Assembly (NCBI RefSeq): GCF_000318095.2
Contig: NZ_KB290702.1
Coordinates: 61,276-121,258, forward strand
DNA from: Alloprevotella sp. oral taxon 473 str. F0040
Lineage (GTDB): Bacteria; Bacteroidota; Bacteroidia; Bacteroidales; Bacteroidaceae
Direction of reading: 5' to 3'
Length of the DNA: 59,983 nucleotides
The notes beneath the pieces were generated by a model. The model had not been told where the DNA came from. It was given only the letters and a program-made list of their open reading frames with translations, and searched no databases. Shown one piece after another: positions 10,534-52,920 of the stretch (positions are counted from its first letter, which is position 1; every line of letters starts with the position of its first letter). The position numbers were made by a program, and so were the translations under genes.

Positions 10534-10690
10534 TCGGAGAGCTGTCCTAATAAAAGGAGAGCTGTCCTAATAAAACTCAGAGTCATTCAAAATAATCTCG
10601 GAGTTATTCAGAAAAATCTCCGAGAGATTCTTAAAAAAGTCGGAGAGTTTTTCTAAACTCTTGGAGTTTTCTTCCTCGACGCTCCTAGAT
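10534..10690. repeat. 21-bp phased TCGGAG array (array 1)
   Basis: Cores of the type TCGG/TCCG/TCAG start at 10534, 10554, 10577, 10598, 10619, 10640 and 10661, with a last weak one near 10682. The last six are 21 bp apart. The cores are separated by A- and T-rich runs. The array ends about 30 bp before the -33 box of the GH95 promoter. Confidence 0.85.
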
Positions 10691-10714
10691 TTTTTGAGGA
10701 AAACTACTTCAAAA

Positions 10715-10746
10715 TTTGGTCATTCACCGAAAACATGATAAATTTG
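10715..10746 (+). promoter_or_regulatory. Promoter of the GH95-GH95-GH16 cluster
   Basis: TTTG (10715-10718), a 20-bp spacer and TAAATTTG (10739-10746) fit the Bacteroidota consensus. The start site would be near 10752, leaving a leader of about 200 nt that contains the 23-bp palindrome at 10797. Confidence 0.7.
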
Positions 10747-10796
10747 CTACGCAAAGTTAGCAGAATAGACTTTAGATTTCTCTCCCCTATGTAGGG

Positions 10797-10819
10797 AATT
10801 AGACGTTAAACGTCTAATT
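10797..10819. repeat. 23-bp palindrome built from the TTAGACGTT motif
   Basis: AATTAGACGTT and its reverse complement meet with only the central base unpaired. It lies in the inferred leader of the first fucosidase gene. It is a head-to-head pair of the TTAGACN heptamers seen elsewhere. It could fold in RNA or bind a dimeric protein. Confidence 0.7.
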
Positions 10820-10955
10820 ACTAAAGACTAAAGGAGGGTCTTGCTTCATAACTATTGTCGCAATTTTATACAGTTATGCGCTGTTATTAGAAGTTGTAAG
10901 GCTAAAGTCCAAATCATCATTACCTTGATACATCTATAACCCTCTCTTTAACCTC

Positions 10956-13900
10956 ATGAAAAGATTCTACGCGCTGTTTGCATTGTGCTGTGTATGGGCA
11001 GTAAATGCCTTGGCACAACTCGCCCCTGAGTTTTCTACTGTGGAGAAACCTCACTATTTTCGCATTCAATTCACCCGAGGCAATGTCTATCTCTCGGACG
11101 AAGGCAACGGAAAACTGCTGAAATCTCAAGAAGCTTTGCCACTCGACGGACAGAAATTTCAGTTTATTGGCACCCAAGACAACTGCGTGCTGCGCTCTGC
11201 ACTCGGACACTATGTGACCATGCAGCAAGGCACTGCCCCCGATGGTCGTTCTGGACAATTCTTTGCAGCTACCACCGATGCAACAAAAGCCGTGAACTTT
11301 GCTTTCAAGATGCAGGGCAAGGGCTACGAACTCGCCAATCTGGCAGTGGCCAACAATAATTTCATGAATCTTTTTGGAGGCGGCGGTGCTGGTCGCGTGC
11401 TGGGCATGTGGCAGTTTGGCGACGTGGGCAATGCTTTTATCCTCAAACCAGGCGACGGAAAGGTGACCATGCCCGACCGCTATACGGGCTATCACAATGT
11501 GGTGCGCGGCATGGGCGAATACCCCCTCGCAGGAGTGAGCACTTTTGCACCCAAAAATCCCCTCACCCTTTGGTATCCCTCGCCTGCCAACGCGGGTCCC
11601 AACCCTTGGATGGAGTATAGTTTGCCCATCGGCAACGGACAGTTGGGCGCGTGTATCTTTGGTGGCGTGAAAACTGACGAAATCCAATTCAATGAAAAAA
11701 CGCTTTGGTGGGGCACTCCTAAGGACATGCAACGCCAAAATGGCGATGGTCCTGTATCTGGTTTCGGATGCTACCTCAACTTTGGCGGACTTTTCGTGCA
11801 AAATCTCAATGCGAATCTCTCGCAAGTCAAAGACTATGTGCGCTATCTCGACATCCAGACGGCTGTGGCTGGCGTGAAATTCACAGACGAAGCTGGCACA
11901 CAATACACTCGCCGTTATCTTTCGTCACAACCCGATGGAGTGATTGCCGCACTCTACGAAGCGAACGGCAAAAACAAGCTCGACCTTCAGTTCACACTCA
12001 TCTCGGGCGATACGCTCAAAACGAAGAAAACGGAGTACACAGCCGACGGTTCGGGCTGGTTTGCAGGCAAATTGCCTACCATCTTCCACAACGCCCGCTT
12101 CAAAGTGGTGCCTGTGGGCGGTACACTCACAGCCACAGCAGATGGTATCGTGGTGAAAGGTGCTGAAAAAGTGATGGTGATCCTCGCTGGAGGCACTTCG
12201 TTTGCCCCCACCCTCCCCGAGCGCACCAAAGGCACTGCCGATGATCTCAACGCACGCATCACAGCATTGGTGGACAACGCTGCGAAGAAGTCTTTTGAAG
12301 CTATCGAAGCTGCCAACATCGCCGACCACCAATCTTATATGAGTCGTGTGGCATTCCACCTCGAAGGTGCGGCTTCTCAGCGCAACACCAAGGACTTGGT
12401 GGACTATTATAGTGCTGCGCCTAACAATCGCAACACGGCAGATGGTTTGTTCCTCGAACAACTCTATTTCAACTTTGGTCGCTACCTGAGCATATCTTCT
12501 AGCCGCGGATCTATGCCTGTGCCTAACAACTTGCAAGGCATTTGGAACAACCGCCACGATGCTCCTTGGAACTCTGACGTGCACAACAATATCAATGTGC
12601 AAATGAACTATTGGCCCGCAGAGCCAACCAATCTCTCTGACTGCCACATGCCTTTCCTCAACTATATCATCAACAATTCTCAAAGCGAAGGATGGCAACG
12701 CGCAGCTCGTGAGTTCAACAAAATCAACGGAAAGTCCAACAAGGGTTGGACAGTCTTCACTGAGTCTAACATCTTTGGTGGCATGTCCACTTGGAGCAGC
12801 AACTACTGCGTGGCCAACGCTTGGTTGGTCTATCACCTCTGGCAGCACTATCGTTACACGCTTGACCAGGACTTCCTCCGTCGCGCTTGGCCTGCCATTT
12901 GGGGTAGCGCAGAGTTCTGGATTCATCGTCTGAAGAAAGCCAATGATGGCACGTATGAAGCTCCCAACGAATGGTCACCAGAATATGGTCCCAAACAAGA
13001 TGGTGTGGCTCATGCTCAACAGTTGATTACCGAAAACCTGCAAATCGCTCACGATGTCGTGGAGATTTTGGGTGCGAAAAACGTGGGCATCTCTGATGAA
13101 GACCTCAAGCTCCTCAACGATCGTCTGACTCACCTCGACAAGGGTCTGCGCATCGAGAAATATCGCAACGACTGGGCACAACGTGAAGCCAGAGAACGCG
13201 GCATTTCCAAGGACACCCCCCTCTTGAAAGAATGGAAATATAGCGACTATCGCGCTGGTGGTGACGTAAACCACCGCCACCTTTCTCACCTCATGTGCCT
13301 CTATCCCTTCAGCCAAGTGCAAGAAGGCGACCAAGGTTTCTATGAAGCAGCGAAAAACTCTCTCGCACTCCGTGGTGATGATGCCACAGGATGGTCCATG
13401 GGATGGAAGACCAACCTCTGGGCTCGTGCAAAGGATGGCAACCACGCTCGTCGCATTCTCAGCAACGCACTGAAACACGCGCAAGCCACTCACGTGGTAA
13501 TGTCGGGCGGTGGCGTATATTACAACCTTTGGGACGCACATCCTAGCTTCCAAATCGATGGTAACTTCGGTGTGACTGCAGGTGTTGCGGAGATGTTGCT
13601 CCAAAGTCAGAATGATGTATTGGAGATTCTCCCTGCTCTCCCCTCTGATTGGACCGCAGGTTCCATCACCGGTTTGAAAGCCGTGGGTAACTTCACCGTC
13701 GACATGACTTGGAATGCTGGTAAACCCACGATGGTGAACATCACTTCTCACAAGGGCACTGCGCTTCGCGTGAAGGGTGCAGAACTCGCTAAGGTGAGTG
13801 TGATGCTCAATGGCAAAGAGGTGCAACCTCAACTTGCTGCTGGCATCGATGCGAAACAGCAGGTTTACGAAATCCCTGGCGTGAAAGCAGGCGACAAAGT

Positions 13901-14072
13901 GGTGATTAACTACACCAAGCCTACCGCCATTGCTGGAATTCGTGCAAAGCAAGAAGCTAACCTAGGCTCAGCTGCCATGGCTACTGCCCGTGTTTATGAC
14001 CTCTCTGGCCGATTGGCGGATGCTGCCTCACATGGCGTGCTCATCACACAAGGCAAGAAAACGATTAAATAA
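10956..14072 (+). CDS. GH95 alpha-L-fucosidase, secreted (first copy)
   Basis: The protein (1038 aa) has a signal peptide (about 1-21), an N-terminal beta-trefoil-like domain (about 25-175), the GH95 N-domain (PWMEYSLPIGNGQLGACIFG) and the (alpha/alpha)6 catalytic barrel. By comparison with the family, the catalytic set is present: the Asn pair N545/N547 in NINVQMNYWPAE, acid E676 in WSPEYG, and D868 in FQIDGNFG. GH95 enzymes mainly remove alpha-1,2-fucose from host or milk glycans, though some act on L-galactose. The C-terminus (VYDLSGRLADAASHGVLITQ, then GKK) resembles short T9SS-like tails and is shared with the next two genes. It is the first gene of the cluster, with its own promoter. 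Confidence 0.93.
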   Translation: MKRFYALFALCCVWAVNALAQLAPEFSTVEKPHYFRIQFTRGNVYLSDEGNGKLLKSQEALPLDGQKFQFIGTQDNCVLRSALGHYVTMQQGTAPDGRSGQFFAATTDATKAVNFAFKMQGKGYELANLAVANNNFMNLFGGGGAGRVLGMWQFGDVGNAFILKPGDGKVTMPDRYTGYHNVVRGMGEYPLAGVSTFAPKNPLTLWYPSPANAGPNPWMEYSLPIGNGQLGACIFGGVKTDEIQFNEKTLWWGTPKDMQRQNGDGPVSGFGCYLNFGGLFVQNLNANLSQVKDYVRYLDIQTAVAGVKFTDEAGTQYTRRYLSSQPDGVIAALYEANGKNKLDLQFTLISGDTLKTKKTEYTADGSGWFAGKLPTIFHNARFKVVPVGGTLTATADGIVVKGAEKVMVILAGGTSFAPTLPERTKGTADDLNARITALVDNAAKKSFEAIEAANIADHQSYMSRVAFHLEGAASQRNTKDLVDYYSAAPNNRNTADGLFLEQLYFNFGRYLSISSSRGSMPVPNNLQGIWNNRHDAPWNSDVHNNINVQMNYWPAEPTNLSDCHMPFLNYIINNSQSEGWQRAAREFNKINGKSNKGWTVFTESNIFGGMSTWSSNYCVANAWLVYHLWQHYRYTLDQDFLRRAWPAIWGSAEFWIHRLKKANDGTYEAPNEWSPEYGPKQDGVAHAQQLITENLQIAHDVVEILGAKNVGISDEDLKLLNDRLTHLDKGLRIEKYRNDWAQREARERGISKDTPLLKEWKYSDYRAGGDVNHRHLSHLMCLYPFSQVQEGDQGFYEAAKNSLALRGDDATGWSMGWKTNLWARAKDGNHARRILSNALKHAQATHVVMSGGGVYYNLWDAHPSFQIDGNFGVTAGVAEMLLQSQNDVLEILPALPSDWTAGSITGLKAVGNFTVDMTWNAGKPTMVNITSHKGTALRVKGAELAKVSVMLNGKEVQPQLAAGIDAKQQVYEIPGVKAGDKVVINYTKPTAIAGIRAKQEANLGSAAMATARVYDLSGRLADAASHGVLITQGKKTIK

Positions 14073-14082
14073 GCGTTTGTAT

Positions 14083-14117
14083 TTAGACGTTAGACGTTAG
14101 TATTTAGACGTTAGATG
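14083..14117. repeat. TTAGACN heptamer array after the first GH95 gene
   Basis: Five contiguous 7-bp units: TTAGACG, TTAGACG, TTAGTAT, TTAGACG and TTAGATG. The array begins 10 bp after the stop codon and has no gene inside it. It lies between the two GH95 genes. Confidence 0.8.
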
Positions 14118-14305
14118 GGAGAAATTAGCCCTTAGCAACTAAAGTACAGATGCTAGAAGGCTAGATTTCCCAAAAGATAAACGTACTCATTAGCGACCTA
14201 GATGTCATACGTGACAATAAATAGCGTGGGACGTTTGAAACTAGATAGTAGACATCGGAATACATCGCGTATTCCGATGCCTCTTTTCCAAGATACATCA
14301 CAGCA

Positions 14306-17300
14306 ATGAACAAGATACTTTCCCTCCTTGCACTAGCAGCCACTGGTTCTAGCGCGATGGCCCAAAGCCCAGTGCCCACTTTTACGGCACAAGATAAGCT
14401 CGATGCGGCTTCCTATTACCACATTCGCTTCAAAAATGGTAGCGTGGAACTTGTGGACAAAGGCGTTAATGCTAAAATTTCTACCGACTATGGCAATGAT
14501 GCTTCGGCACAACTCTTTGCCCTCATCGGCACACGTCAGCACTTCGTGCTCCGTAGTAAGAATGGTAACTACATAGGATTCCAAGGAGATCGCTTGACCA
14601 GCGTGAAGGAAGCTACGCAAGCCCTGCAACTCACCTTGCTCAATAGCCCCGTGTTTGGTGAAGGGTATTATGTGATTTCACGCGTGGACGACCAAAAGAA
14701 TTCCTTCAATCCTCATGGCGGAACAGGAGTGGGCAAACAAATTGGCTTCTGGGAAAATGCAGATGCCAACAATTCGCTCTACTTCCCCTTACCCGAAGAT
14801 GTGCCTACTCCCACTTATTCGGCCTATCGCGACAAGTTTACGAAAAACGAATACGCATATAAAGGCAACAACTCCTTCCGCCCCGAACGTCCCCTCACAC
14901 TTTGGTACACCAAACCTGCGATGGGGGTAAGCAATCCATGGATGGAGTATTCCCTCCCCTTGGGCAATGGTCATCTCGGTGCCAGCCTTTTCGGCGGAAT
15001 TCAGGTGGATCAAATCCAACTGAATGAGAAGACCATCTGGACAGGTACGCCCACTGACATGGGACACTATGGAGGATATCGTAACCTCGGTGGTATCTTC
15101 GTCCACGACCTTAGCGGCAACTTCGACAAGACTACGAAGAAGGCCAACGGCTATTCTCGATTCCTCGACATCGAACGCGGCATTGGTGGTGTAGATTTCT
15201 CCGACAGCCAAGGCACTAAATACGAACGTCGCTACTTTTCTTCTGCCCCCGATGACGTGGTGGCTGCCCACTACAAGGCCACGGGTGACAACAAACTTCA
15301 CCTTCGCTTTGCCTTGGTAGCAGGAGAAGAAATCAATGCTTCCGACCCCAGCTACGACAAAAACGGAGAAGCCTTCTTTGCAGGCAAGCTCCCCACGGTA
15401 TATTATAACGCACGTATGAAGGTTGTGCCCACTGGAGGTACGATGACAGTGACAAAGGAAGGCATAGAAGTGAAAGATGCCACGGAAGTCAAGGTGATTT
15501 TCTCCGCTGCTTCTACTTTCGACAGCAATGTTCCTTCGCGCTCTTCAGGCGATGCCACCACAATGGCTACCAAAGTACAAGATATCGTGACCAAGGCGGC
15601 TGCCAAATCTTGGGCGGAACTAGAGAGTGCTCATGTAGCCGACTTTGAAAGCTACATGGGACGTGTGAAACTTAACCTTGACGATGCAGTTTCTCGCAAA
15701 CATACGGAGTCACTCATCGGATTTTACAACACCAACACTCGCAACAGAGACTCTAAGGAAGGGCTCTTCCTCGAACAACTCTACTTCAACTATGGTCGCT
15801 ACCTCATGATTTCTTCCAGCCGTGGTGCGATCAATGTTCCCTCCAATCTGCAGGGTATCTGGAACGATAAGGCCAATGCGCCTTGGAACTCCGACATCCA
15901 CACGAACATCAACGTGCAGATGAACTACTGGCCCGCAGAAACGACAAACCTCTCCGACTGCCACCTCCCCTTCCTCAACTATATTCTCGACAACTACAAG
16001 GAGAAGGGTTGGCAAAATGCCGCTCGTTGGGGACAAGATGGGCAGAAAGTGGGCTGGACTGTCTTCACCGAGAGCAACATCTTCGGAGGTATGAGCCAAT
16101 TCCGAACAAACTACAAGGAAGTAAATGCTTGGTATTGCACCCACCTTTGGGATCACTATCGCTTTACCCGCGATGAAGCCTTCCTCCGCAAGGCATTTCC
16201 TGCCATTTGGCAGAGTGCGCAGTTCTGGATGGAGCGTATGATTCAAGACAAAGTGAAAAAAGACGGTACTTTTGTTGCTCCCAACGAATACTCTCCTGAA
16301 CAAGACAATCACCCCACAGAAGACGGCACGGCACACGCACAGCAGTTGATCACCGCCAATCTCCAAATCGCCCAAGAGGCCATCAACATTTTGGGTGCAG
16401 AAAGCCTAGGTCTCTCCGCTGCTGACGTAGCACAGCTCAAAAAATACGTAGAAAAGACCGACAAGGGCCTACATATCGAAGAGTATAAGGGAGATTGGGG
16501 CAACTGGGCCACGAATCTCGGTATCAACAAAGGCACTAAGCTCCTCAAAGAATGGAAGTACGCTTCATATAGCGTGTCAGGCGACAAGGGACACCGCCAC
16601 ATGAGCCACCTCATGTGCCTCTATCCCCTCAACCAAGTGGAGCGTGGCGACGATTACTTCCAACCTGCGGTCAATGCTCTCGCCCTTCGTGGTGATGAAG
16701 CTACCGGTTGGTCCATGGGCTGGAAGGTGAATCTCTGGGCGCGCGCCAAAGATGGTGACCACGCTCGCCGTATTCTCAACAATGCCCTCAAGCACTCCAC
16801 GGCCTACAACACCGACCAATATCGCGGAGGTATCTATTATAATCTCTATGACTCCCACGCGCCTTTCCAGATCGACGGCAACTTTGGCGTATGTGCGGGA
16901 ATAGCAGAGATGCTCCTCCAAAGTCAAAACGACGTCATCGAACTTCTCCCCGCGCTTCCTCGTGCTTGGAAGAATGGAAGTATCACTGGTCTGAAAGCCG
17001 TGGGCAACTTCACAGTCGATGTGGCGTGGAAAAACCTCCTTCCCTCCGAAGTGAAGATTGTGAGTCACAAAGGTCAGCCCATGCGAGTCAAGGTTTCTGG
17101 CAACACGCAAAAGCCAGGTCAGGAGATCGATCCCTATAAGTTCGACCTCACCTTGGTGAAAGTCCTCGTCAATGGCCTTGGAGCCAAGGTGATTCCCGTA
17201 GAAACCAAAGATAAGAAGCACCCCACCTTCGAGATCAAAGCCTTGGTAGGCGATCAAATCATGGACGTTCCAGCAGGAGCCACCGTGACCATCGATTTCT

Positions 17301-19429: not shown

Positions 19430-19544
19430 CCACTCCCTTCTCTGCCCGCTCACCACACATTGCGGCAGAGATGCCGACAAAGCTCTCCCTAGACTTTGAG
19501 CATCGCTTCCTATGGAAAAACAGGATTCTCTTAGCCGAGAGAGA

Positions 19545-19685
19545 AACACTCAGAGAGTTGTAAAAACATCTCCGAGACATTCTCAAAAAAGTCGGAGAGT
19601 TTCCCAAAAAACTCCGAGATATTTTGGACAAAGTCCGAGTTTTTTATAGAAAAATTCCGAGAAACCTTTGTCAGTCTCGGAGAAG
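19545..19685. repeat. 21-bp phased TCGGAG array (array 2)
   Basis: Cores start at 19550, 19571, 19592, 19613, 19634, 19656 and 19677, at steps of 21, 21, 21, 21, 22 and 21 bp. Both orientations of the core occur (TCGGAG and TCCGAG). The last two units overlap the promoter region of tRNA-Gln. Confidence 0.9.
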
Positions 19686-19697
19686 TCAGTAAATTTG
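19667..19697 (+). promoter_or_regulatory. Promoter of tRNA-Gln, embedded in array 2
   Basis: TTTG (19667-19670), a 19-bp spacer and TAAATTTG (19690-19697). The spacer contains the final TCGGAG unit of array 2. The start site is expected near 19703, inside the hairpin that precedes the tRNA. Confidence 0.65.
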
Positions 19698-20828: not shown

Positions 20829-21028
20829 GGACGTTAGATGTTTGACTTTAGACCTTAGAGATTAGACTTTAGACGTTAGCAGTTAGACGTCTGAAAGTAG
20901 ACATTAGAGAGTAGGGCATGAAATCCTTGCTACCCATAGCGCAATCATAAAGTCTTATCTAAGATATTAAGCACGACGACATTCGCCCCTCAAACGTCTA
21001 AAGTCTAACTTCTAACGTCTAATTTCTA
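20829..21028. repeat. Inverted TTAGACN arrays around a gene-less core
   Basis: The left arm (about 20829-20915) holds at least nine 7-bp units of the type TTAGACN. The right arm (about 20993-21028) carries them inverted (AACGTCTAAAGTCTAACTTC). The 75-80 bp between holds no gene, but GTCTTATCTAAGATATTAAG resembles TTTCTTATCTTAATTATTTA beside the four-helix-bundle gene at 7300. It may be a deleted derivative of that element, or a long stem-loop ending the djlA-like transcript. Confidence 0.65.
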
Positions 21029-27573: not shown

Positions 27574-28506
27574 CTATGCTCCAAATACTTCGTGGAGGCT
27601 ATCGAGCCAGTGCGGAATCTCTAGTCCAAAAGTGGCTTTGATCTTAGACTTATCGAGCACACTATAGGCAGGACGCTTGACAGGCGAAGGGAATTCATCG
27701 GAATGGCAGGGCAACACCTTGCACGTGCTTTCAGGACACATGCGAAGGAGGGCCATGGCAAAATCATACCACGAGCAGGCACCTTCGTTGGAATAGTGAT
27801 ACACTCCCTTATGCTCAGATTTCAACCCCTCATGGTCGATGATGTGCATCAAAGCCGCCGCCAAATCGCGTGCAGAGGTGGGTGTGCCCACTTGGTCAAA
27901 CACCACCTTTATTTCGGGACGACTGTCGAGCAGACTGAAGATTGTCTTGGGAAAATTCTTGCCAGGCGTGCTGTACAACCAAGCGGTGCGCACAATGATA
28001 TGCTGGCATCCAGAGGCAATGATGGAGTCTTCGCCCAAAAGCTTCGTACGGCCATAGATGCCAGTGGGCGTTCCCTTCTGACTCTCGGAGCAAGGCGTGT
28101 TGTAAGGCTCAGCTCCAAACACATAGTCTGTGGAGATGTGCACCAACCACGCATTTCTTTTGGCCGCTGTCTGAGCCATGTGCGCCACTGCCTGATGGTT
28201 GAGCGCATCGGCTAGAGCTTCGTTGGTCTCTGCCGCATCGACGTTGGTGAAGGCTGCACAGTTGATGATGATTTCTCCTTGCACAGCTTCCATGGCTTGA
28301 GCAAACGCCTCAGCATCTGTGATGTCTAGGCGATAGATGGGGAGAGCTTCTGTGGAGACTTCGGGGTGCGTGTCGAGAGTGGTGGAAGTGATTTCCGCAG
28401 CTCCTTGCACATCGGTGAAGAAGAAACGATGTTGTGGATAGTGGGGAGCCAGAACTTGCAACTCATGACCGAGTTGTCCAGCTGCACCAGTGACGAGAAT
28501 GTTCAT
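27574..28506 (-). CDS. rmlD: dTDP-4-dehydrorhamnose reductase
   Basis: RmlD (310 aa) performs the last step to dTDP-L-rhamnose. It has the NAD(P) motif VTGAAGQLGHELQ at residues 5-17, STDYVFGAEPYNTP in mid-protein and the catalytic GIYGRTKLLGE. The sequence LVHISTDYVF is diagnostic. An acidic stretch near residues 35-60 is slightly longer than in E. coli. It is first of the rmlD-rmlB pair, with a promoter about 100 bp upstream and array 3 immediately beyond that. Confidence 0.95.
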   Translation of the reverse strand: MNILVTGAAGQLGHELQVLAPHYPQHRFFFTDVQGAAEITSTTLDTHPEVSTEALPIYRLDITDAEAFAQAMEAVQGEIIINCAAFTNVDAAETNEALADALNHQAVAHMAQTAAKRNAWLVHISTDYVFGAEPYNTPCSESQKGTPTGIYGRTKLLGEDSIIASGCQHIIVRTAWLYSTPGKNFPKTIFSLLDSRPEIKVVFDQVGTPTSARDLAAALMHIIDHEGLKSEHKGVYHYSNEGACSWYDFAMALLRMCPESTCKVLPCHSDEFPSPVKRPAYSVLDKSKIKATFGLEIPHWLDSLHEVFGA

Positions 28507-28632: not shown

Positions 28633-28679
28633 TCAGTCCATAGAGTTTCACATTGATGAAATAGGCTGTTTTTTTCGAT

Positions 28680-28797
28680 AAGTCGGAGAGTTGTCCTAAA
28701 AAACTCGGAGAGTTTCAAAAAAGTCTCGGAGTTTTTTAGAAAAATCTCGGAGAACTTTTGGAAAAAGTCGGAGATTTTCTGAGAACTCTCGGAGATT
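28680..28797. repeat. 21-bp phased TCGGAG array (array 3)
   Basis: TCGG starts at 28683, 28705, 28726, 28747, 28768 and 28789, at steps of 22, 21, 21, 21 and 21 bp. Here all cores have the same orientation. The flanks are A-runs before and T-runs after each core. Confidence 0.92.
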
Positions 28798-28852
28798 TTG
28801 ATCGCTTCCCTCGGAAAAGAAAGGGATTTGGCCTCAAAGGGCAAAGAAAAAC

Positions 28853-28997: not shown

Positions 28998-29537
28998 CTA
29001 CTTTGCTGCTGAACGACGGAGGAGAAGCTGGTTGCGCATTTGGCGAAGCAGCACTCTACCGTGATTGCGGAAGGCAAAGAGAGGGATGGTCACACCTACG
29101 ACCATGGCCATGATGGTGAGGGTACAAGTGATCCAGTTGAAGTTGAAGAGGGCGAAATAGTGATTGAACAAGTCGTCATCGGCCTTGTGTGCCAACAGTT
29201 CTACGAGCGACTGGATGCTGCCATAGGCGAACTTACCAGGCACCATGGGGAGGAGAGCTGGGAAAGACAAGGTTTCGGCAGGCGACTTGATTTTGGTGGA
29301 AAGGGGAATGGACACGCAGCCGATGACAAGTCCAGCTACGCCGGCAGCCATGGCGATGTGCCAATCGGCAAAGTCCATGAGGAGGAAACGAGTGATGTGG
29401 CCGAGTGCGGCAAGAAGGGCACAACCCCAGAAGGTGGAACGAGTGGGATTGCTGATGCTTGCAAATCCGATGCAAGCAATGGCGGCAAAAACACCGTCAT
29501 TGACGATATCGTAGGTGAGATCTAAAAAGTTTACCAT
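28998..29537 (-). CDS. Threonine/serine exporter, C-terminal half (ThrE_2 type)
   Basis: The protein (179 aa) is almost entirely hydrophobic, with four to five membrane segments, and matches the small subunit of split ThrE exporters (DUF3815-like; LPMVPGKFAYGSIQSLVELL is typical). Together with the larger subunit directly upstream it should export threonine or serine. The gap of 95 bp and shared strand suggest one operon, closed by the terminator at 28853. In many bacteria the two halves are fused. Confidence 0.85.
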   Translation of the reverse strand: MVNFLDLTYDIVNDGVFAAIACIGFASISNPTRSTFWGCALLAALGHITRFLLMDFADWHIAMAAGVAGLVIGCVSIPLSTKIKSPAETLSFPALLPMVPGKFAYGSIQSLVELLAHKADDDLFNHYFALFNFNWITCTLTIMAMVVGVTIPLFAFRNHGRVLLRQMRNQLLLRRSAAK

Positions 29538-32636: not shown

Positions 32637-33857
32637 TTAGAAATCAACATAGTTTTTTGCCAAAACGGGGCTAATCCAGTGGCGATAGGTGCGACCGAAA
32701 TGTTCTTCCACTTGGGGAGTGAAAGCACGGGGCATGGAAGGTGCTGGCACCCCCTCGCCGATGCGCTGCGGACAAACCTCTTCCCAGGCCTCATCCCAGA
32801 GGTCGCGCTCTATGAAACTTTGGAGCGTGGCTTGTCCCCCTTCGACAAAGAGCGACTGCACTCCATCGCGGCGCAAGCCTTCAAGCAAGGAGTCGATGTC
32901 GGCATAGGCTTGAAATCCGGCAGAAAGCGCACGTTCGTCCACACCACCTAGGACACAGCAGAGCGGCGATGCGCCTGGCCAGCAACGCACATTGAGTTGT
33001 GGGGCATCGAGTTGGAAAGTCTTGCGCCCCACTAGGATAGCTTGGTGCGTGGCTCGGAAGTGATGCACGCGCAGTAGGGACGATGGGGAAGAAAGTCGGA
33101 GCGGTGCTGCGGACACTTCGCCATTTTCGTCCAGACTCCGCGAGCGGTCGATGAAACCATCGGAGGTGGCAGCCCATTTGAGGGTGATGAAGGGGCGGCG
33201 CAGCACGTTTTGGCAGAAGAATTTGCGATTAAGATAGATGCACTCTTCGCGAAGCACGCCCACCGTTACGTCAACTCCCGCTTCTTGTAGCATGGTGATG
33301 CCACGTCCACTGACTTTGCGGAAGGGATCTTCCGAACCGATGACACAACGTTTCACCCCGTTTTTAATGATCAAGGCAGAACATGGCGGCGTGCGACCAT
33401 AGTGTGCGCAAGGTTCTAGAGTGACGTAGATGGTACTCTCGGAGAGGAGTGGACGATCTTCGGGACGAACGGAGCGAAAGGCGTGGACTTCGGCATGACC
33501 TTCGCCAGGTCGCACGTGGTATCCTTCGCCTAGGATGCGAGCTTCTTCACCTGTGCCGTGGACAATCACGGCTCCTACCATAGGATTGGGCGCAGTGGTG
33601 AGTTCACCTTGTCGGGCTAGTTGGAGACAACGTCGCATCCAGCGTTCATCTTCTGCCTGCGTGGCGCGAGAAACTCCGTTTGCAGAGCTAAAAGTTCCGT
33701 TTGCAGAGCAAGAAGTTCCCTTGGCTGGGCTTGAAGCTCCGTTTGCAGAGCTAGAAACTCCATTTACAGAGCTGGAAAGTTCAAGTGCCGCACAGGTTTC
33801 ACCGACACCCGCACAAGAATCTCCGTAATCAGCGGAGGTATGTGGTAAATCTGACAT
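32637..33857 (-). CDS. ribD: Riboflavin biosynthesis deaminase/reductase
   Basis: RibD (406 aa) performs the deaminase and reductase steps after GTP cyclohydrolase II. The zinc-binding deaminase half shows HAEVHAF and EPCAHYGRTPPC, and the reductase half ITLKWAATSDGFID and SLFVEGGQATLQSF. The chosen ATG (33857) is the first that avoids reading back into cysS. A further upstream frame would overlap cysS. Residues about 28-62 are a low-complexity linker of seven-residue units (SSSANGA-like) encoded by a 21-bp tandem repeat, absent from ordinary RibD proteins. It follows cysS by 86 bp. Confidence 0.93.
   Translation of the reverse strand: MSDLPHTSADYGDSCAGVGETCAALELSSSVNGVSSSANGASSPAKGTSCSANGTFSSANGVSRATQAEDERWMRRCLQLARQGELTTAPNPMVGAVIVHGTGEEARILGEGYHVRPGEGHAEVHAFRSVRPEDRPLLSESTIYVTLEPCAHYGRTPPCSALIIKNGVKRCVIGSEDPFRKVSGRGITMLQEAGVDVTVGVLREECIYLNRKFFCQNVLRRPFITLKWAATSDGFIDRSRSLDENGEVSAAPLRLSSPSSLLRVHHFRATHQAILVGRKTFQLDAPQLNVRCWPGASPLCCVLGGVDERALSAGFQAYADIDSLLEGLRRDGVQSLFVEGGQATLQSFIERDLWDEAWEEVCPQRIGEGVPAPSMPRAFTPQVEEHFGRTYRHWISPVLAKNYVDF
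33670..33774. repeat. In-frame 21-bp tandem repeat in ribD
   Basis: Five units of 21 bp, similar to GAAGCTCCGTTTGCAGAGCT, lie end to end. They add a Ser/Ala/Asn/Gly linker to the RibD N-terminus. Copy number could vary without frameshift because 21 bp is seven codons. The sequence is unrelated to the intergenic TCGGAG arrays. Confidence 0.9.
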
Positions 33858-36976: not shown

Positions 36977-37105
36977 ATAGGAGATGTATGAAATGATGTT
37001 GCGAAATAGAACGTCGGACAGCAGAAGAAGTGGAGTGGTCTTTTTGAGGTCGAATCCCACCTCTTCAGAGCTTTTTGGGCGAATCTGGGAGGAGTGAACA
37101 AAAAA

Positions 37106-37202
37106 AGTCGGACTTTTTCAAAAAACTCTCGGAGATTTTTCAGAAAATGTCGGAGATTTTCCAAAAAAACTCGGAGTTTTTTAGTGCAACTCTCGGACTT
37201 TT
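37106..37202. repeat. 21-bp phased TCGGAG array (array 4)
   Basis: Cores start at 37108, 37129, 37150, 37171 and 37193, with steps of 21, 21, 21 and 22 bp. A-runs precede and T-runs follow each core. The array lies upstream of the sialidase gene, between it and the divergent membrane-protein gene. Confidence 0.92.
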
Positions 37203-37608
37203 TTGTTGCCAACTGCAGTAAAAAAGCTTGTATCCTTAGGAAGCAGCCGACGGATTGGCCATTCTTTCAGGCCTCAGACGGGCGTTGCCCGATGCCGACT
37301 CCCCGCATACCAACGCTTAACATTCACAGCAAAAATACTATTTTTTGACGAAGCAGGCAAATATCCCCCTATCATTTCACATTTCGGAGGAGAAAAGAGG
37401 GAATAATCCACATCTATAAAATCATCGTTTCAAAGAAAGCTAGCCGACTCACTGGACATCTCAACATAAGCAACGCAAAAGCTCCCGACCTCTTTGGAAA
37501 GTTCTGCCAACTTCTTGGAAAAAGATAACGATTCTAGACGTTATAGCTCCACAATCTAAAGATTTTGTTGTATTTTTGTGGCAGCAGTTTTCTAATACCA
37601 GACTGCCT

Positions 37609-46802: not shown

Positions 46803-46810
46803 CAAAATTA
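46803..46810 (-). promoter_or_regulatory. Promoter -7 box of fur
   Basis: TAATTTTG on the minus strand, with CTTG 20 bp upstream as a weak -33. It lies 25 bp before the ATG. Confidence 0.5.
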
Positions 46811-46979
46811 CTAATTCCTTTTGGGCGGAGCAAGCATCGCAAACGATTTTTTTGAATGGCAGCCAGAGGCCTTCAAAAGATATTACCTATGTGATGACCA
46901 CTCAGTTGGCGTCACAAAACCGCAAGACTCAGTCTTTTTGATTCCTTATTATCTTTGGGTAAGTCCTGTTGTCAATGCC

Positions 46980-49001
46980 CTACTGGCGAACATCAATTCG
47001 TGGAAGTACAATCATCCAGCTGCGCATAGAGAAATAGCGTTCCAGCTGCATGGGAAGTTGGTCGAGATAGCGATGATGAGAGGGCATGCCTCGGCGTGCT
47101 GAGATAAACACAGCAAGATGATCGGAGCGCAATCGAGAAGCCAAGGGGAGGAGGTCGTCCCACGAAGTAAAGTCGTGATATTCCACCTCTGGCTTTTGTT
47201 TCGACGACTCCCAAATCTGTCGCAAAGCCTGCATAGTTTCGGGTGCACCATAAGCCGAGATGCGACAAGACAACTGCACGGACAGTGTGGCTAATCGGGC
47301 TGCCCAATGACGAAAACCAGGGTCGTATTCACCACGACGAGGCACTACGATGTGCATACGTCGCAGAGAGTGGATGGGCACCAACGGACGATAGACCATG
47401 ATTTGCTGAGAGGCGGCATCGAAAAGGTCAGTAGCAAACTTGCCGAAGAAGGTGGCAGAAATAGATTTCTTTTGGTGAAGCCCTATGAGAATGTCCGTAG
47501 CCTCGTGCTCTCCAGCCGTGTGTACGATGCCCGTCACGGCATTTACTGACCGGCGGCAATGAGTTTGCATGCGCACCCCCACCGTAGCTGCCATCTTTGC
47601 AGCGTAGTCTAAGCCTTGTTGTGCTGTAGCTCGCTCTTCTGTATCGTCGGAAAGCACTACACTCACAGCTGTAAGTTGAGAAGTAGCCGAGGCACTACGT
47701 AACATCAATGCCATATTGGTCATCGGAATCACCATACGCGGATTAGCCAAAGCCACGACGAGGGAATCTTTCTCTTCTCGCTCTGCTGAAGCGGACAGCG
47801 TAGCTCCCGAAAGCATCAGGCGACGTGCAGCACGCTCGGTGAGGGCGGAAGCGATAATGCACGACCCAAGAATGAGCATCATGGCAGCTCCCACCACATC
47901 TTCGTTGAGGAGGTGTGATCCATCGGGCAATATGATTTCATACCCCACCATAGCAATGGCTAGCGCCGAAGCTGCACGCGCAGTACTCAAGCCTCCTACC
48001 ATACTTCGTTCTATGGCTGAAAATTGCAAGGCACGCCCCACGAGTTGCGCTGCGAGCAGTTTACCAGCAGTTCCGATGAGAATCATGGCTAAAGCCATTG
48101 CTGCAATGTTCCATCCAGAAAGGAGGGTGTGGAGATTGATAATCATGCCCACACCTATCAGGAAGTAGGGGATAAAGAGTGCATTTCCAACAAATACTAT
48201 TCGCTGCATCAAAGGGCCTACCGCAGGAATCTCCCTGTTTAACACAAGTCCTACGAGAAAGGCTCCAAGAATTCCTTCCATGCCCGCCCATTCCATAAGA
48301 CCTGCTCCTAAGAAGACCAAGACCAGCACAAAGACATATTGCACCACCCCTTCATCGAAACGGCGGAAAAACCAGCGTGCTACCCACGGCATGGCTAAGA
48401 ACAACCCTACAGTGACCAAGACCACACGCCCAAGAAGATACCAGATATTAAACTCTCCTCCATCGGGCTTATACATTCCCACAGCCACAGCTAGCACCAC
48501 CAAGGTAAGCACGTTAGTAAGGATGGTTCCTCCCACAGCCATTCCCACTGAGCGATGACGCGCCAAGCCCCACCTCATCACTAAGGGATAGGTGAGTAAG
48601 GTATGCCCCGAATACATCGCAGCTACCAATATGGCAGCTGGAAGAGATAGGCCTAGTCCCCAGCGATTGACCAAGAAACCTAAGCCCATGGGGAGGGCAA
48701 AAGATATGGTTCCAAAAGCTAGAGCCCCCCAACGATAACGCTGCACATCGGTAAGGTTCATGCCCAGTGAAGCCAGAAACATGATGTAGTAAATCCCCAC
48801 TTTACCGAAGATTTCAAAAGAGGCATCCCGAGAAAGCAGATACACGCCGTGTGGCCCTACCAGCATACCCGCCACAATAAGGCCAACGATAGACGGAATT
48901 TTGAGACGTTCCAGCACCATCGGGGTGAAAAGAATCAAGCCCAAGACGATGAGCACAATCCAAGTAGGGTTGGTTACGAGAGGTTCTGTGGGAAGGAACA
49001 T
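46980..49001 (-). CDS. CPA2 cation:proton antiporter with a soluble C-terminal domain
   Basis: The protein (673 aa) has a membrane domain of about 12 helices (residues 10-390) of the Na+/H+ or K+/H+ exchanger type: PSIVGLIVAGMLVGPHGVYL at the start and MEGILGAFLVGLVLNREIPA in mid-protein. The C-terminal 250 residues are soluble and recall a universal-stress-like domain (VVLSDDTEERATAQQGLDYA), not the usual TrkA-N domain. It probably exports Na+ or K+ for pH or osmotic balance. It ends 200 bp before fur and has no strong partner gene. Confidence 0.88.
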   Translation of the reverse strand: MFLPTEPLVTNPTWIVLIVLGLILFTPMVLERLKIPSIVGLIVAGMLVGPHGVYLLSRDASFEIFGKVGIYYIMFLASLGMNLTDVQRYRWGALAFGTISFALPMGLGFLVNRWGLGLSLPAAILVAAMYSGHTLLTYPLVMRWGLARHRSVGMAVGGTILTNVLTLVVLAVAVGMYKPDGGEFNIWYLLGRVVLVTVGLFLAMPWVARWFFRRFDEGVVQYVFVLVLVFLGAGLMEWAGMEGILGAFLVGLVLNREIPAVGPLMQRIVFVGNALFIPYFLIGVGMIINLHTLLSGWNIAAMALAMILIGTAGKLLAAQLVGRALQFSAIERSMVGGLSTARAASALAIAMVGYEIILPDGSHLLNEDVVGAAMMLILGSCIIASALTERAARRLMLSGATLSASAEREEKDSLVVALANPRMVIPMTNMALMLRSASATSQLTAVSVVLSDDTEERATAQQGLDYAAKMAATVGVRMQTHCRRSVNAVTGIVHTAGEHEATDILIGLHQKKSISATFFGKFATDLFDAASQQIMVYRPLVPIHSLRRMHIVVPRRGEYDPGFRHWAARLATLSVQLSCRISAYGAPETMQALRQIWESSKQKPEVEYHDFTSWDDLLPLASRLRSDHLAVFISARRGMPSHHRYLDQLPMQLERYFSMRSWMIVLPRIDVRQ

Positions 49002-49130
49002 AGAAGGATGGTGTAGAGATTTGGCATATTCACTGTAAAGAATGCAAGATTATACGTTGCAAACTATACATTTTCCAGCAAAGGAACAAAAAAAATGGCA
49101 AACTAAGCAGGTATTTCAAAGATAAATTGA

Positions 49131-49138
49131 TACTTTTG
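49131..49138 (+). promoter_or_regulatory. Promoter -7 box of asd
   Basis: TACTTTTG followed by CAGCATAAA. It gives a leader of about 130 nt, which contains the repeat at 49187. Confidence 0.5.
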
Positions 49139-49186
49139 CAGCATAAATAATGAATCTTCATGGGGGAAGGTATATCTATTGTATGA

Positions 49187-49231
49187 GGTTACTCATTATA
49201 TATATAGGAAGGTACTCATATTATATATAGG
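49187..49231 (+). repeat. Direct repeat in the asd leader
   Basis: GGTTACTCATTATATATATA and GGTACTCATATTATATATAG follow each other at a 24-bp step, each ending in TATAGG. Possible operator or RNA element. The AT-rich content makes chance similarity possible. Confidence 0.5.
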
Positions 49232-49275
49232 TGTCTTCTGACCAACCTCCCTCCTTTTCATCCATATCTCTGACA

Positions 49276-50298
49276 ATGAAAGTAGCCATCGTGGGCGCCA
49301 GTGGTGCCGTAGGCCAAGAATTTTTGCGCACATTGGCCGAGCGCAATTTTCCTATCGACGAACTTCGCCTCTTCGGTTCGAAGCGCAGTGCAGGAACTTC
49401 CTACAATTTTTGTGGGAAAGAAATTGTGGTGCGCGAACTCCGCCACGATACGGATGATTTCAAAGGCATTGACATCGCATTTACCAGTGCTGGCGCAGGC
49501 ACTTCTAAGGAATTTGCTGCCGATATCACCAAATATGGTGCTATAATGATTGACAACTCTAGTGCTTTCCGCATGGACAATGACGTGCCGCTCGTGGTGC
49601 CTGAATGCAATGCGACCGATGCACTCGAACGTCCTCGCGGCATCATTGCCAATCCTAACTGCACCACCATCATGATGGTCGTGGCACTACAAGCCATTGA
49701 ACGCCTGAGTCACATCCGTCGCGTACACGTTTCGAGCTACCAGTCGGCTTCTGGTGCTGGACAAGCTGCCATGGATGAACTCATGGAGCAACAGAAGGCA
49801 CTAGCCAATGGGGAAAAGCCTCATGTAGAAAAGTTTGCTTACCAACTGGCCTACAACGTGATTCCGCAAATCGACCAATTCTGCGACAACGGCTATACGA
49901 AGGAGGAGATGAAGATGTACAATGAGACCCGCAAGATCATGCACAGCGACATCGAAGTAAGTGCCACCTGTGTACGCGTCCCCACGATGCGCAACCACGC
50001 AGAGTCCATTTGGTTAGAAACAGAAAGCCCCATCACTTTGGAAGCTGCTCGTGAAGCTATCGCAAATGGCGAAGGTCTGGTGCTCCTCGACAATCCTGCA
50101 GAGCGACAATATCCCATGCCCCTGCTTCTGGAAAGCTGCGACGAGGTCTATGTAGGCCGCATTCGCAAAGACTTGGCCCATCCCAATGGCTTGACACTTT
50201 GGTTGGTGAGCGATCAAATCAAGAAGGGAGCAGCCCTCAATGCCGTGCAAATCGCTGAGTGGTTGGTCAAAAATGACCCTTCTCTCGCAGGTAAATAG
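49276..50298 (+). CDS. asd: Aspartate-semialdehyde dehydrogenase
   Basis: Asd (340 aa) reduces aspartyl phosphate to aspartate semialdehyde on the path to lysine, threonine, methionine and diaminopimelate. The NADP motif [20 protein letters not shown], catalytic Cys in [16 protein letters not shown] and basic residues around [18 protein letters not shown] are present. The ATG at 49276 is chosen to match the family start. A longer frame adds 15 unconserved residues. Monocistronic, with a terminator 30 bp downstream. Confidence 0.96.
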
Positions 50299-50330
50299 CC
50301 ATTTACAACACTTTATGCAAGAATAAATAG

Positions 50331-50361
50331 GAAAAATCGTGGTACTTTACTACGATTTTTT
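50331..50361 (+). terminator. Terminator of asd
   Basis: GAAAAATCGT and ACGATTTTT pair, with GTA/TAC continuing the stem after a mismatch, and T-runs at the end. Confidence 0.75.
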
Positions 50362-50423
50362 CGGCTTTAACGTACAAAATCACCCTATTATTGCCCTCAA
50401 ACGCGTTTTTTTCTGTAAAAACA

Positions 50424-50454
50424 TTGGGCTATATAGCAAAAACTACTACCTTTG
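50424..50454 (+). promoter_or_regulatory. Promoter of the OmpA-like gene
   Basis: TTG (50424-50426), a 20-bp spacer and TACCTTTG (50447-50454), then CAAGCAC. The leader to the ATG would be about 305 nt, unusually long. Confidence 0.65.
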
Positions 50455-50766
50455 CAAGCACAAGACAAGGATATAACAGGTGAAAATCTCTTGATATTCT
50501 CTGAATTGAACGTTTTCTCAAGCCCAACAAGTAGTGTCAAAGATGGAGTCCCGATTTGACCTGACACAGCTGAGGATAGTTTTCTTCTGAAGAATTCAAG
50601 TCACCATCGGTTGCATGCACTTGGAAGTCCTTGTTCAACGACACGTCAATCTCCTTTTAGGCATCTCCCATAGCCACATTCATAGTTTTAGCAGGGCATA
50701 GCGGTTGCCTGTCTTCAGTGTCTCTCCATTAGCATTATCAGAACAACAAACTCAAAAATAGATATT

Positions 50767-51861
50767 ATGCAATTCAAGTCTATCCTCGTAGCTGCCCTTG
50801 CTGCTTTTTCGCTCAGCGCAGCCGCTCAAGACGCTCCTAAAGAGAAGTTCCATCCTCACTGGACCCTTGGTCTTCAAGGTGGTGTAGGCTACTCTCATGG
50901 CGCGCACAAGAAGTTGGGTGACGTTATCACTCCCGCTGCTGGTTTCCACTTCGGCTACCAGTTCACCCCTGTCTTCAATCTCCGTGCACACGCAAGTGGC
51001 TGGGAAGGTAAGAATGGTTGGGACTATGACCACACTCCTCAAACTTACAAGTGGAACTACGTGACTGCTGGTCTCGATGGTATGTTCAACCTCTCTAACC
51101 TCTTCGCAGGTTACAACCCCAACCGTTGCGTTTCTCTTAACGCTTTCGTTGGTGTAGGTTACATCCACGGCTTCGACAACAAGGAAGCTCTCGATGCTAA
51201 GCGTCTTTCTCCCGATGAACTCCTCCTCGTTTGGAACAGCAACACACTCAACCTTCCTACTGGTCGCTTCGGTGCTAACGTAGACTTCCGTCTTAGCAAG
51301 CGCGTAAGCTTCAACGTTGAAGGTCTCGTGTCTGTGACTGACGACAAGTTCAACTCTAAGGATGGTAAAAACGTAGACTGGCAAATGAACCTCTTCGGTG
51401 GTTTCACCTTCCGTCTTGGCAAGCTCTCTACTGTAGTTCCTGTACCTGTAGTTCCTGCTCCTGTACAACCTGTTGAAGAACCTGTTGAAGTGCCAGCTCC
51501 TGCACCTGCTCCCGCACCTGCTCCTGCTCCTGTTAAGGCAGAACCTCTCACTCGCAACGTATTCTTCCTCATCAACTCAGCTAAGGTTCGCCAATCTGAA
51601 ATGGTGAAGGTACAAGAAGTTGTAGACTTCCTCAACGCTAATCCTAGCGCTAAGGTAGCTATCACTGGTTACGCTGACAAGGACACTGGTAACAAGACCA
51701 TCAACACTCGCCTTTCTAAGCAACGTGCTAACGCTGTGTTCAACGAACTCGTGAAGAAGAACATCCCTGCAAACCGCATCATCAAGGATGCTAAGGGTGA
51801 CACTGTTCAACCTTTCAGCGTCAACGAAGAAAACCGTGTGGTTATCTGCATCGCTGAATAA
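50767..51861 (+). CDS. OmpA-family outer-membrane protein
   Basis: The protein (364 aa) has a signal peptide (to about residue 20, SAAAQD), an eight-strand-type barrel (about 30-215), a Pro/Ala-Val linker (about 220-255, VEVPAPAPAPAPAPAPVKAE) and an OmpA C-domain (about 265-364) that should bind peptidoglycan (VFFLINSAKVRQSEMVKVQE, KVAITGYADKDTGNK, TRLSKQRANAVFNELVKK). It is an abundant envelope protein in Bacteroidales. Codon use is very uniform (many GCT, CTT and TAC codons), in line with high expression. A strong terminator follows. Confidence 0.92.
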   Translation: MQFKSILVAALAAFSLSAAAQDAPKEKFHPHWTLGLQGGVGYSHGAHKKLGDVITPAAGFHFGYQFTPVFNLRAHASGWEGKNGWDYDHTPQTYKWNYVTAGLDGMFNLSNLFAGYNPNRCVSLNAFVGVGYIHGFDNKEALDAKRLSPDELLLVWNSNTLNLPTGRFGANVDFRLSKRVSFNVEGLVSVTDDKFNSKDGKNVDWQMNLFGGFTFRLGKLSTVVPVPVVPAPVQPVEEPVEVPAPAPAPAPAPAPVKAEPLTRNVFFLINSAKVRQSEMVKVQEVVDFLNANPSAKVAITGYADKDTGNKTINTRLSKQRANAVFNELVKKNIPANRIIKDAKGDTVQPFSVNEENRVVICIAE

Positions 51862-51900
51862 TCTTTTCTGAAACTGATTTTTCAGAGTTTCTCATAATGA

Positions 51901-51936
51901 GTCGCTCTCAATCGCAAGATTGAGAGCGACTTTTTT
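51901..51936 (+). terminator. Terminator of the OmpA-like gene
   Basis: Perfect 13-bp stem GTCGCTCTCAATC with GATTGAGAGCGAC around GCAA, followed by TTTTTT. Confidence 0.95.
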
Positions 51937-52824
51937 ATTTTCTCCACCATGAAGGAGTGCATACCTTAAGAGAACAGCTTTGGGAAACTCGGGATTAGCT
52001 TCTGACACCTACTTATTGATGCTACTAATGACACTAATTTTCTCATCGCCTTCTCTACAATTTATACCTTGGTTCTCTAAAGAGATGCTCTCAAAACTAG
52101 CATAAAATCACTATTTCTGCATAAGACACAGCTCACTCATAGGCTTAGCCTCCACAGTCATTCTCTAACTCATGCACCCCCCACGCAAGCCCCCCTCGTC
52201 ACTATCCGTTCGCGTGAGATCGGTCGCCCCCTCTGTTTGCCATTTTCTCCCAACAGCCTGTGCCATACGCTACTATGATGTCAGCAACGTAGCTGCGCCA
52301 CGCGAAATTCTCGCACGCATCGAGATCTGAGATAGGTCGGGGGCCCTCTTTCCCTGCGCCATGGGTCATCCCATCCCCCTTGCTATAGCCTATAACGCCG
52401 TTTCTCCATAGCACGCCTCACATCTTCCCATAAAGTTGTTCAACCTCTCCTGCGTCGTGTATGGAGTTATCTCTTTCCCTCATGGGAAAACCTCCCAGGT
52501 CTCCACCAGAATATTTATCATCAATTCTCACACTTAGCCCTTTCTTTCGCTGGATTCCCTCAACACTCTCGACCTCCTGCCCCAAGAGCCCCTTGAGAGG
52601 TGGATAGAGCTGCGACATTGCTCCTGTTAGCACCTGTGTTTGGCTGGCGAGGGCACAAACATGTGTCTTGGCCTTTTGCAGGCAGCGGTCAGTGCTTCGT
52701 CGCGTGCCATCTGCTTTGAGCAGAAAGATGTGAGAACAGCACCATGGTAGCGGAACCGCGTGGGACGATTATATCCGCAAATACAGAGCTAAAGACCAGC
52801 CACAAGCGGCAAGAATAATATAAA

Positions 52825-52920
52825 AAAAGGAGAGTGTAGAGAAAATGTCGGAGATATTCTAAAAAATCTCCGAGTTTTTTCGGAAAATCTCCGAGAAAAT
52901 TTGAAAGTTCTCCGAGAGTT
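52825..52920. repeat. 21-bp phased TCGGAG array (array 5)
   Basis: Cores start at 52827 (degenerate), 52848, 52869, 52890 and 52911, each 21 bp apart. Three of them have the inverted form TCCGAG. No gene or consensus promoter is near. Confidence 0.88.

What the first reader, a model, noticed from the sequence alone, without database searches (positions are those of the whole stretch)
10534..52920. Five intergenic arrays with a strict 21-bp period
Arrays at 10534-10690, 19545-19685, 28680-28797, 37106-37202 and 52825-52920 share a TCGGAG/TCCGAG core between A- and T-runs. Core positions step by 21 bp almost without exception (for example 28705, 28726, 28747, 28768, 28789). 21 bp is two helical turns, so all cores and A/T-tracts face one side of the helix. 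The unit sequence drifts but the period does not, which suggests selection on spacing. A phased binding platform or curved DNA is a good explanation. All five lie between genes.
Basis: partly seen in the sequence, partly recalled or inferred. Interest (0 to 1): 0.85.

Follow-up and report, generated by a model that had tools for sequence, protein, structure and literature searches.

The report
Intergenic arrays locked to 21 bp
This Bacteroidales bacterium and some of its relatives carry short repeat arrays between genes in which the spacing of the repeats is kept while their sequence changes, which points to an unknown DNA-binding structure rather than simple repeated DNA.

Summary
All five arrays exist: 4-7 units of an imperfect palindrome (AAAAnCTC[G/C]GAGnTTTT), noncoding, stepping by 21 or 22 bp apart from one 43-bp step. 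The genome holds about 88 such places (compiled). In 63 arrays read in full, 210 of 240 steps are 21 bp and 30 are 22; 19, 20, 23 and 24 were allowed and never seen. Units within an array are no more alike than units of different arrays. Largely unselected samples of relatives show arrays of unrelated sequence with the same habit: lag 21 in this genus, lag 22 in other genera, neither in ten outgroup genomes. Two arrays testable in a sister species sit in the same gaps with drifted cores and kept register; seven other sister arrays have no listed counterpart here. Listed arrays are never closer than 6 kb. Predicted curvature is raised here but does not explain relatives. About a quarter of arrays lie in or beside a MITE-like inverted-repeat box. 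Best guess: phased platforms for a cooperative DNA-binding protein; no binder was identified.

The parts
10526..10673 (.). array 1: core centres 10536, 10579, 10600, 10621, 10642, 10663 (the 43-bp step holds a degenerate unit)
19542..19689 (.). array 2: 7 cores 19552-19679, between a GH16-like gene and tRNA-Gln; the sister species has a shorter, degenerate array in the same gap
28675..28823 (.). array 3: 7 cores 28685-28813, between the RmlD-like gene 27574-28506 and the ThrE_2-like gene 28998-29537; the sister species has an array in the same gap
37100..37205 (.). array 4: 5 cores 37110-37195, in a divergent gap
52840..52923 (.). array 5: 4 cores 52850-52913, in the long gap before an ArgR-like gene
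33675..33782 (.). sixth 21-bp array, of unrelated sequence (TCCGTTTGCAGAGCTAGAAGT, 5.1 copies), without the CTCSGAG core

Best explanation
The arrays are intergenic nucleoprotein platforms: 4-7 (most often 5) palindromic sites held two helical turns apart, so that a dimeric DNA-binding protein can bind every site on the same face and touch its neighbours. The contact between proteins, not the base sequence, sets the step, so sequences drift with the protein's specificity while the register stays. The step differs by clade (21 bp in this genus, 22 bp in sister genera), as expected of a protein ruler. Arrays stand at least about 6 kb apart, in gaps of all orientations, which fits a chromosome-organising role (anchor, bridge or supercoil-domain boundary) better than control of particular genes. 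Shown here: register, clade-specific period, lack of homogenisation, exclusion distance among listed arrays, partial conservation of position. Inferred: that a protein exists, that it binds cooperatively, and what the platforms do.
For: G000: 210 of 240 steps are 21 and 30 are 22; 19, 20, 23 and 24 were accepted by the scan and do not occur. By intact cores alone, with distances up to 66 bp, 137 of 174 are 21, 22 are 22, 11 are 42-43 or 63-64, 4 are 31, 31, 32 and 53. 25 of 31 22-bp steps are terminal, counted before two duplicate arrays were removed. Drift over an array is 0 bp in 37, +1 in 22, +2 in 4 of 63. Unit identity within arrays 12.70/21 (627 pairs) against 12.48 between arrays (20,000 sampled pairs). 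Sister species: arrays in the same two gaps; inside array 2 the only gap of the alignment is 43 bp (two units), inside array 3 one +1 bp, plus an 18-bp alignment gap at the edge of its terminal unit. Period by clade, noncoding samples: this genus 11 of 20 arrays at lag 21 (from 4 of 13 genomes), 1 at 22; other genera 14 of 30 at 22 (from 8 of 26 genomes), 6 at 43-44, 1 at 21, 2 at 42; outgroup 0 of 9. Exclusion: 0 of 78 gaps under 6 kb, 12-16 expected by uniform placement. The unit consensus is symmetric about the core (alignment of 42 of the 63 arrays). Consensus RNA structure of those 42: 0 pairs. Predicted bend 59 against 38 degrees for shuffles.
Against: No binder, no occupancy data, no phenotype. 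Palindromy is not universal: 34 of 73 arrays pass p<=0.05, against 5 of 18 control arrays of other periods. Position is only partly conserved: for 6 sister-species arrays the mapped neighbour gene lies 10-44 kb from any listed array here, and a seventh is absent at the matching gap. Unlike unit types occur in one genome and even in one array (G156 L114), which a single sequence-specific protein would not explain. 16 of 63 arrays share flanks with other arrays, a mobile-element trait.
Confidence: 0.43

Rival explanations
1. [quoted passage not shown] The constant step is inherited from the founding copy or is the footprint of a transposase that binds the repeats; target immunity could keep copies apart.
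For: The P. gingivalis element is intergenic, dispersed, with leader and tail and a fixed 23-nt step (PMC4596501, abstract and section 5). Here an inverted pair GCTTTCACAACCTTCACA...TGTGAAGGTTGTGAAAGC encloses the arrays of 9 stretches and stands within 225 bp of 7 more arrays; a box also encloses one array of the sister species. L035, L036 and L037 share leader and tail. Positions turn over between species.
Against: 47 of 63 arrays have no flank similarity to another array within 150 bp. The interiors of most boxes look unlike each other (by eye). Unrelated units with one step within a genus, and another step in sister genera, are not explained by descent from one founder. No match of one box with its array in plasmids or phages; the exact box arm is absent from viral contigs.
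Confidence: 0.27
2. Mutational ruler: replication slippage or microhomology recombination adds and removes units in steps of two helical turns, so the period is a by-product without function.
For: The clear length difference of array 2 between species is two units (43 bp) with unbroken flanks. Some relatives' arrays are near-perfect tandem repeats (L116, L117, L118).
Against: G000 units are not homogenised. Decay to about 60% unit identity should also have left 20- and 23-bp steps; there are 0 of 240. Outgroup tandem arrays have other periods. Slippage does not predict the 6-kb exclusion.
Confidence: 0.14
3. Local gene control: promoters, operators, terminators or RNA elements for the adjacent genes.
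For: The window's arrays are intergenic; BrickBuilt segments have promoter elements (PMC4596501, abstract). In tandem gaps the array lies nearer the upstream gene's 3' end in 24 of 33 (one overlapping case left out; my reading).
Against: No orientation preference: 34 tandem, 13 convergent, 11 divergent of 58. The window's neighbours are unrelated genes. RNAalifold finds 0 pairs. Positions are poorly conserved.
Confidence: 0.09
4. Intrinsically curved DNA: the two-turn step phases A/T runs so that the array bends, and the bend itself is what is selected.
For: Bend 59 against 38 degrees for dinucleotide shuffles, 63 arrays; a scan with this genome's consensus unit peaks at 21 bp; 58 arrays exceed unit-permuted and jittered controls. 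The wedge table is recalled from memory.
Against: Relatives' 21-bp arrays exceed plain shuffles (P 0.04 and 0.02) but not unit-permuted controls (P 0.58 and 0.21); 22-bp arrays exceed neither. A-runs and T-runs are out of phase with each other.
Confidence: 0.07

Closest known systems
BrickBuilt MITE/minisatellite of Porphyromonas gingivalis (PMC4596501; abstract, passages and section 5 seen)
   Same: Also Bacteroidales (recalled); dispersed intergenic arrays of a short unit with a fixed step; non-identical units; some copies with leader, tail and inverted ends, some without.
   Different: Step 23 nt there, 21 here; its authors report no BLASTn match outside the species (passage); 19 copies with 1 to 22.8 repeats there, about 88 places with mostly 4-6 units here; here one step spans unrelated unit sequences across a genus.
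REP/BIME palindromic repeats and RAYT transposases (PMC3733652; passages only)
   Same: Short palindromes between genes, clustered; proposed roles in supercoiling.
   Different: In the passages REP partners lie 20-100 bp apart and clusters vary in make-up; no Y1 transposase was found in this genome (that RAYTs are Y1 enzymes is recalled).
A-tract periodicity and nucleoid curvature (PMC3940949; passages only)
   Same: A/T runs in helical phase, proposed role in nucleoid structure.
   Different: That signal is 10-11 bp and spread over chromosomes; here it is a two-turn step in compact arrays with a GC core.
22-bp transposase-site arrays at Tn7 and Mu ends with target immunity; plasmid iterons (recalled, not looked up)
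   Same: Repeats about two turns apart read by a cooperative protein; immunity would space copies apart.
   Different: Those belong to element ends or origins; these are lone intergenic arrays; a linked transposase was not searched for beyond PF01797.

Membership tests
BrickBuilt MITE | 23-nt tandem unit without spacers | tested here: not met
   21 bp, or 22 mostly at array ends
BrickBuilt MITE | leader and tail with small inverted-repeat ends around the repeats | tested here: inconclusive
   16 of 63 arrays share flanking sequence; an inverted pair encloses the array in 9 stretches and lies beside 7 more arrays; the window's five have none
BrickBuilt MITE | always intergenic | tested here: inconclusive
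   58 arrays counted as intergenic; 6 more overlapped weak ORF calls of a home-made caller and were dropped from that count
REP/BIME with RAYT | RAYT (Y1_Tnp, PF01797) encoded in the genome | tested here: not met
   0 matches in G000 (96.7% complete); 40 of 61 genomes of the phylum sample match
REP/BIME with RAYT | palindromic stem-loop unit | tested here: inconclusive
   the DNA unit is a dyad around one G/C but the alignment of 42 arrays folds into 0 pairs
Minisatellite made by recent slippage | units within an array more alike than units of different arrays | tested here: not met
   12.70 against 12.48 of 21; adjacent units 13.15, G000 arrays only
Intrinsically curved DNA | curvature above composition- and period-matched controls | tested here: inconclusive
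   met in G000, not in other genomes' arrays
Structured RNA family | Rfam match or consensus RNA fold | tested here: not met
   only two tRNAs in the window at gathering threshold; 0 consensus pairs
Cooperative protein-binding array | a protein that binds the units | not testable with these tools
   needs pull-down or ChIP

The most novel reading that the evidence does not exclude
A bacterial family marks its chromosomes with 'isoperiodic' platforms: arrays in which the step between sites is what is kept (21 bp in one genus, 22 bp in its sister genera) while the site sequence is free to change, spaced at least 6 kb apart. This would be a chromosome-organising code defined by geometry rather than sequence, read by an unknown filament-forming protein.
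Probability: 0.28. Interest if true: 0.9.

Novelty: new variant of a known kind. Interest (0 to 1): 0.72.

Why it matters
Sequence searches and repeat databases find families by sequence; these arrays share little of it across species and would be missed. A repeat class whose period follows the clade while its sequence does not would point to a protein ruler on bacterial DNA and give a handle on how Bacteroidales chromosomes are organised. It would also make BrickBuilt, so far described from one species, a possible case of something broader.

Tried and rejected
Decayed coding sequence: 22-bp steps break the frame and other genera use 22 bp. RNA element: no consensus fold, no Rfam hit other than tRNAs. 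One long hairpin per array: mirrored units are hardly more complementary (12.24) than non-mirrored ones (12.03). REP/RAYT: no Y1 transposase. Phage or plasmid origin: no match of one box with its array, exact box arm absent from viral contigs. Position code inside arrays: a positional model fits better than a unit-only one (4185 against 3947) but has many more parameters, so I do not rely on it. Palindromy as the invariant: common, not universal. Literature: searches showed BrickBuilt as the nearest thing and nothing that describes these arrays; only open-licence PMC papers are held, and I read passages or listings of most. Overdispersion: extreme against uniform placement (0 of 2000 simulations); weaker against a null limited to gaps: 76 other gaps of at least 200 bp in the 57 stretches hold no array, which at an occupancy near 10%, extrapolated from the window's gap density, has a chance near 5e-4 (my arithmetic). 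Dropped rows: six arrays overlapping weak ORF calls; one G212 array in L107 for the same reason; G043, 518 bases, left out; lags under 12 and low-complexity stretches; L039, whose array failed the profile scan but counts among the 88 places.

Full report
THE OBSERVATION. The five arrays are present at the stated places. Each is a row of imperfect palindromes, AAAA-n-CTC[G/C]GAG-n-TTTT. Core centres and steps were measured: most steps are 21 bp, some, mainly terminal ones, are 22, and array 1 has one 43-bp step. All five lie outside called genes. In the window seven spaced core pairs were found against none in 100 shuffles, one of the seven in a gene.

THE GENOME. The window is G000:C2:61276-121258 of a 2.55-Mb draft. 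One array as query matches 60 times on both strands. A pattern allowing any step from 10 to 40 bp finds 67 + 60 pairs against 2 + 10 for the reversed control; of the 100 listed, by my count, 87 step by 21 and 10 by 22. 57 stretches around the hits and the window gave 63 distinct arrays: 17 with four units, 27 with five, 12 with six, 7 with two, three or seven; 240 steps, 210 of 21 and 30 of 22. The scan accepted 19-24 bp between units; anything else breaks a chain and is not counted. Counted instead by intact cores up to 66 bp apart, 174 distances are 137 of 21, 22 of 22, 11 of 42-43 or 63-64, and 4 others (31, 31, 32, 53). A sequence model from 42 of the 63 arrays (R1) found 179 matches, strands counted apart, at E <= 0.001 (the list is cut, and 150 of 1544 candidates were scored). 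With the earlier lists this gives 88 places.

SELECTION ON SPACING, NOT SEQUENCE. Units of one array agree at 12.70 of 21 positions, adjacent ones at 13.15, units of different arrays at 12.48. The arrays are therefore not young tandem duplications. Units differ at about 40% of positions, yet none of the 240 steps is 19, 20, 23 or 24.

RELATIVES. Exact 21-bp pairs of the TCSGAG core are abundant in G000 (121/119), G275 (146/142), G212 (38/28) and G156 (26/24), with a small excess in G118 of another genus (12/8), of 301 genomes of the family; most others are near the reversed control. Arrays of other sequence are common too: in stretches of six relatives lag 21 dominates with many units (most of these stretches were chosen for core matches). 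One search is the better test: gene-masked stretches, self-match at lags 12-60. Same genus (13 genomes, 612 kb): 11 of 20 arrays at 21, all from 4 genomes, and 1 at 22. Other genera (26 genomes, 844 kb): 14 of 30 at 22, from 8 genomes, 5 at 44, 1 at 43, 1 at 21, 2 at 42. Ten outgroup genomes of the phylum (400 kb): 0 of 9 at 21 or 22. Three shuffles of each set gave 1, 6 and 2 arrays, one of them at lag 22 and one at 43. The sampling is not wholly blind: stretches were taken by contig position, but G118, G139, G300 and G171 were included for raised counts, and a few second stretches (such as G007 and G142) were taken after the first had shown arrays. In G156 one array mixes two unlike cores at the same step (L114). 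P. gingivalis BrickBuilt is 23 nt (PMC4596501, section 5).

A SISTER SPECIES. G212 appears to be LT608321.1, Prevotellaceae bacterium Marseille-P2826: contig length and array coordinates agree; the taxonomy copy does not hold that name. The nearest genes around array 3 are 95-97% identical in protein except RmlD at 76%. An array stands in the same gap for array 3 and for array 2. I read six units at 21 bp in the first and five at 21 bp in the second, where only one core is intact; the degenerate cores were picked by eye, so that register is partly by construction. The alignments are independent of it: within array 2 the only gap is one 43-bp block; within array 3 there is one +1 bp, and an 18-bp gap at the edge of the terminal unit; flanks carry gaps of several other lengths. 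A third G212 array of the syntenic region is absent here. Six other G212 arrays were mapped through one neighbour gene each: all six matches fall on contig C17, 10-44 kb from any listed array; two of the six are only 72% and 53% identical and may not be orthologues, and degenerate arrays would escape the model.

SPACING ALONG THE CHROMOSOME. Among the 88 places the smallest of 78 gaps is 6.0 kb; uniform placement expects 12-16 gaps under 6 kb, and 0 of 2000 simulations reached the observed minimum. In G212, from capped lists, 0 of 56 gaps is under 6 kb, 6 expected, P 0.002, though overall gap variation there is ordinary. Limited to real gaps the effect is weaker but remains. Density is uneven, one per 13 kb on C2 and one per 56 kb on C17.

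STRUCTURE. Predicted curvature of 63 G000 arrays exceeds shuffles (59 against 38 degrees), and 58 exceed unit-permuted and jittered controls; arrays of relatives do not exceed unit-permuted controls. A-runs and T-runs are 14 and 7 bp apart. RNA folding finds no conserved pair. Palindromy holds for 34 of 73 arrays at p <= 0.05, but also for 5 of 18 control arrays.

CONTEXT. Of 58 arrays, 34 lie in tandem, 13 in convergent and 11 in divergent gaps (six arrays over weak ORF calls were dropped). This speaks against promoter or terminator function as the general role.

MOBILE-ELEMENT TRAITS. 16 of 63 arrays share flanking DNA with another array. Much of it is an inverted pair, GCTTTCACAACCTTCACA and its complement, with GC-rich alternating outer ends. 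It encloses the array in 9 stretches (one left arm, L044, read by eye; L039's array is not among the 63) and lies 101-222 bp from 7 more arrays. Every pair found in the G000 stretches is next to an array, but the stretches are centred on arrays. Interiors mostly look unlike each other; L035-L037 share leader and tail. None of the window's five has it. Box and array may be one MITE-like unit, or the box may insert near arrays. No Y1 transposase was found, and one box with its array has no match in plasmids or phages.

CONCLUSION. Spacing is the conserved property. The model that explains most is a cooperative DNA-binding protein reading sites two turns apart; the chromosomal role is inferred from the exclusion distance and the lack of gene preference. 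The mobile-element reading is the main rival and may be true of a subset.

Noticed in passing
L012, L023, L024, L029, L035-L037, L039, L042, L044-L046, L055, L063, L064; also L105 of G212: Inverted box GCTTTCACAACCTTCACA...TGTGAAGGTTGTGAAAGC with GC-alternating outer ends and a variable interior of 94-393 bp, seen beside or around 21-bp arrays.
   Followed up: partly
window 6792-7413, 8400-8493, 14082-14116, 20833-21023; L226 2220-2680: Second intergenic repeat class: heptads TTAGACG, often as inverted arms about 100-500 bp apart (in one case around a small ORF, 6906-7307; in G212 around a 21-bp array).
   Followed up: partly
window 59755-59965: AT-rich array of period about 22/43 at the very end of the contig.
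   Followed up: no
window 27574-28506: RmlD-like protein only 76% identical to the sister species while its neighbours are 95-97% identical: possible replacement by recombination.
   Followed up: no
window 33675-33782: 21-bp array of unrelated unit sequence within the same genome.
   Followed up: partly
G000 contigs C2 and C17: Listed array density differs fourfold between contigs (one per 13 kb against one per 56 kb); relation to origin or terminus unknown.
   Followed up: no
L114 (G156) 8820-8914: One array mixes CGCCGCG-type and CTCGGAG-type units at the same 21-bp step.
   Followed up: no
G000, core distances: The few off-register core distances (31, 31, 32, 53) are near 3 and 5 helical turns, so they may still be in helical phase.
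   Followed up: no
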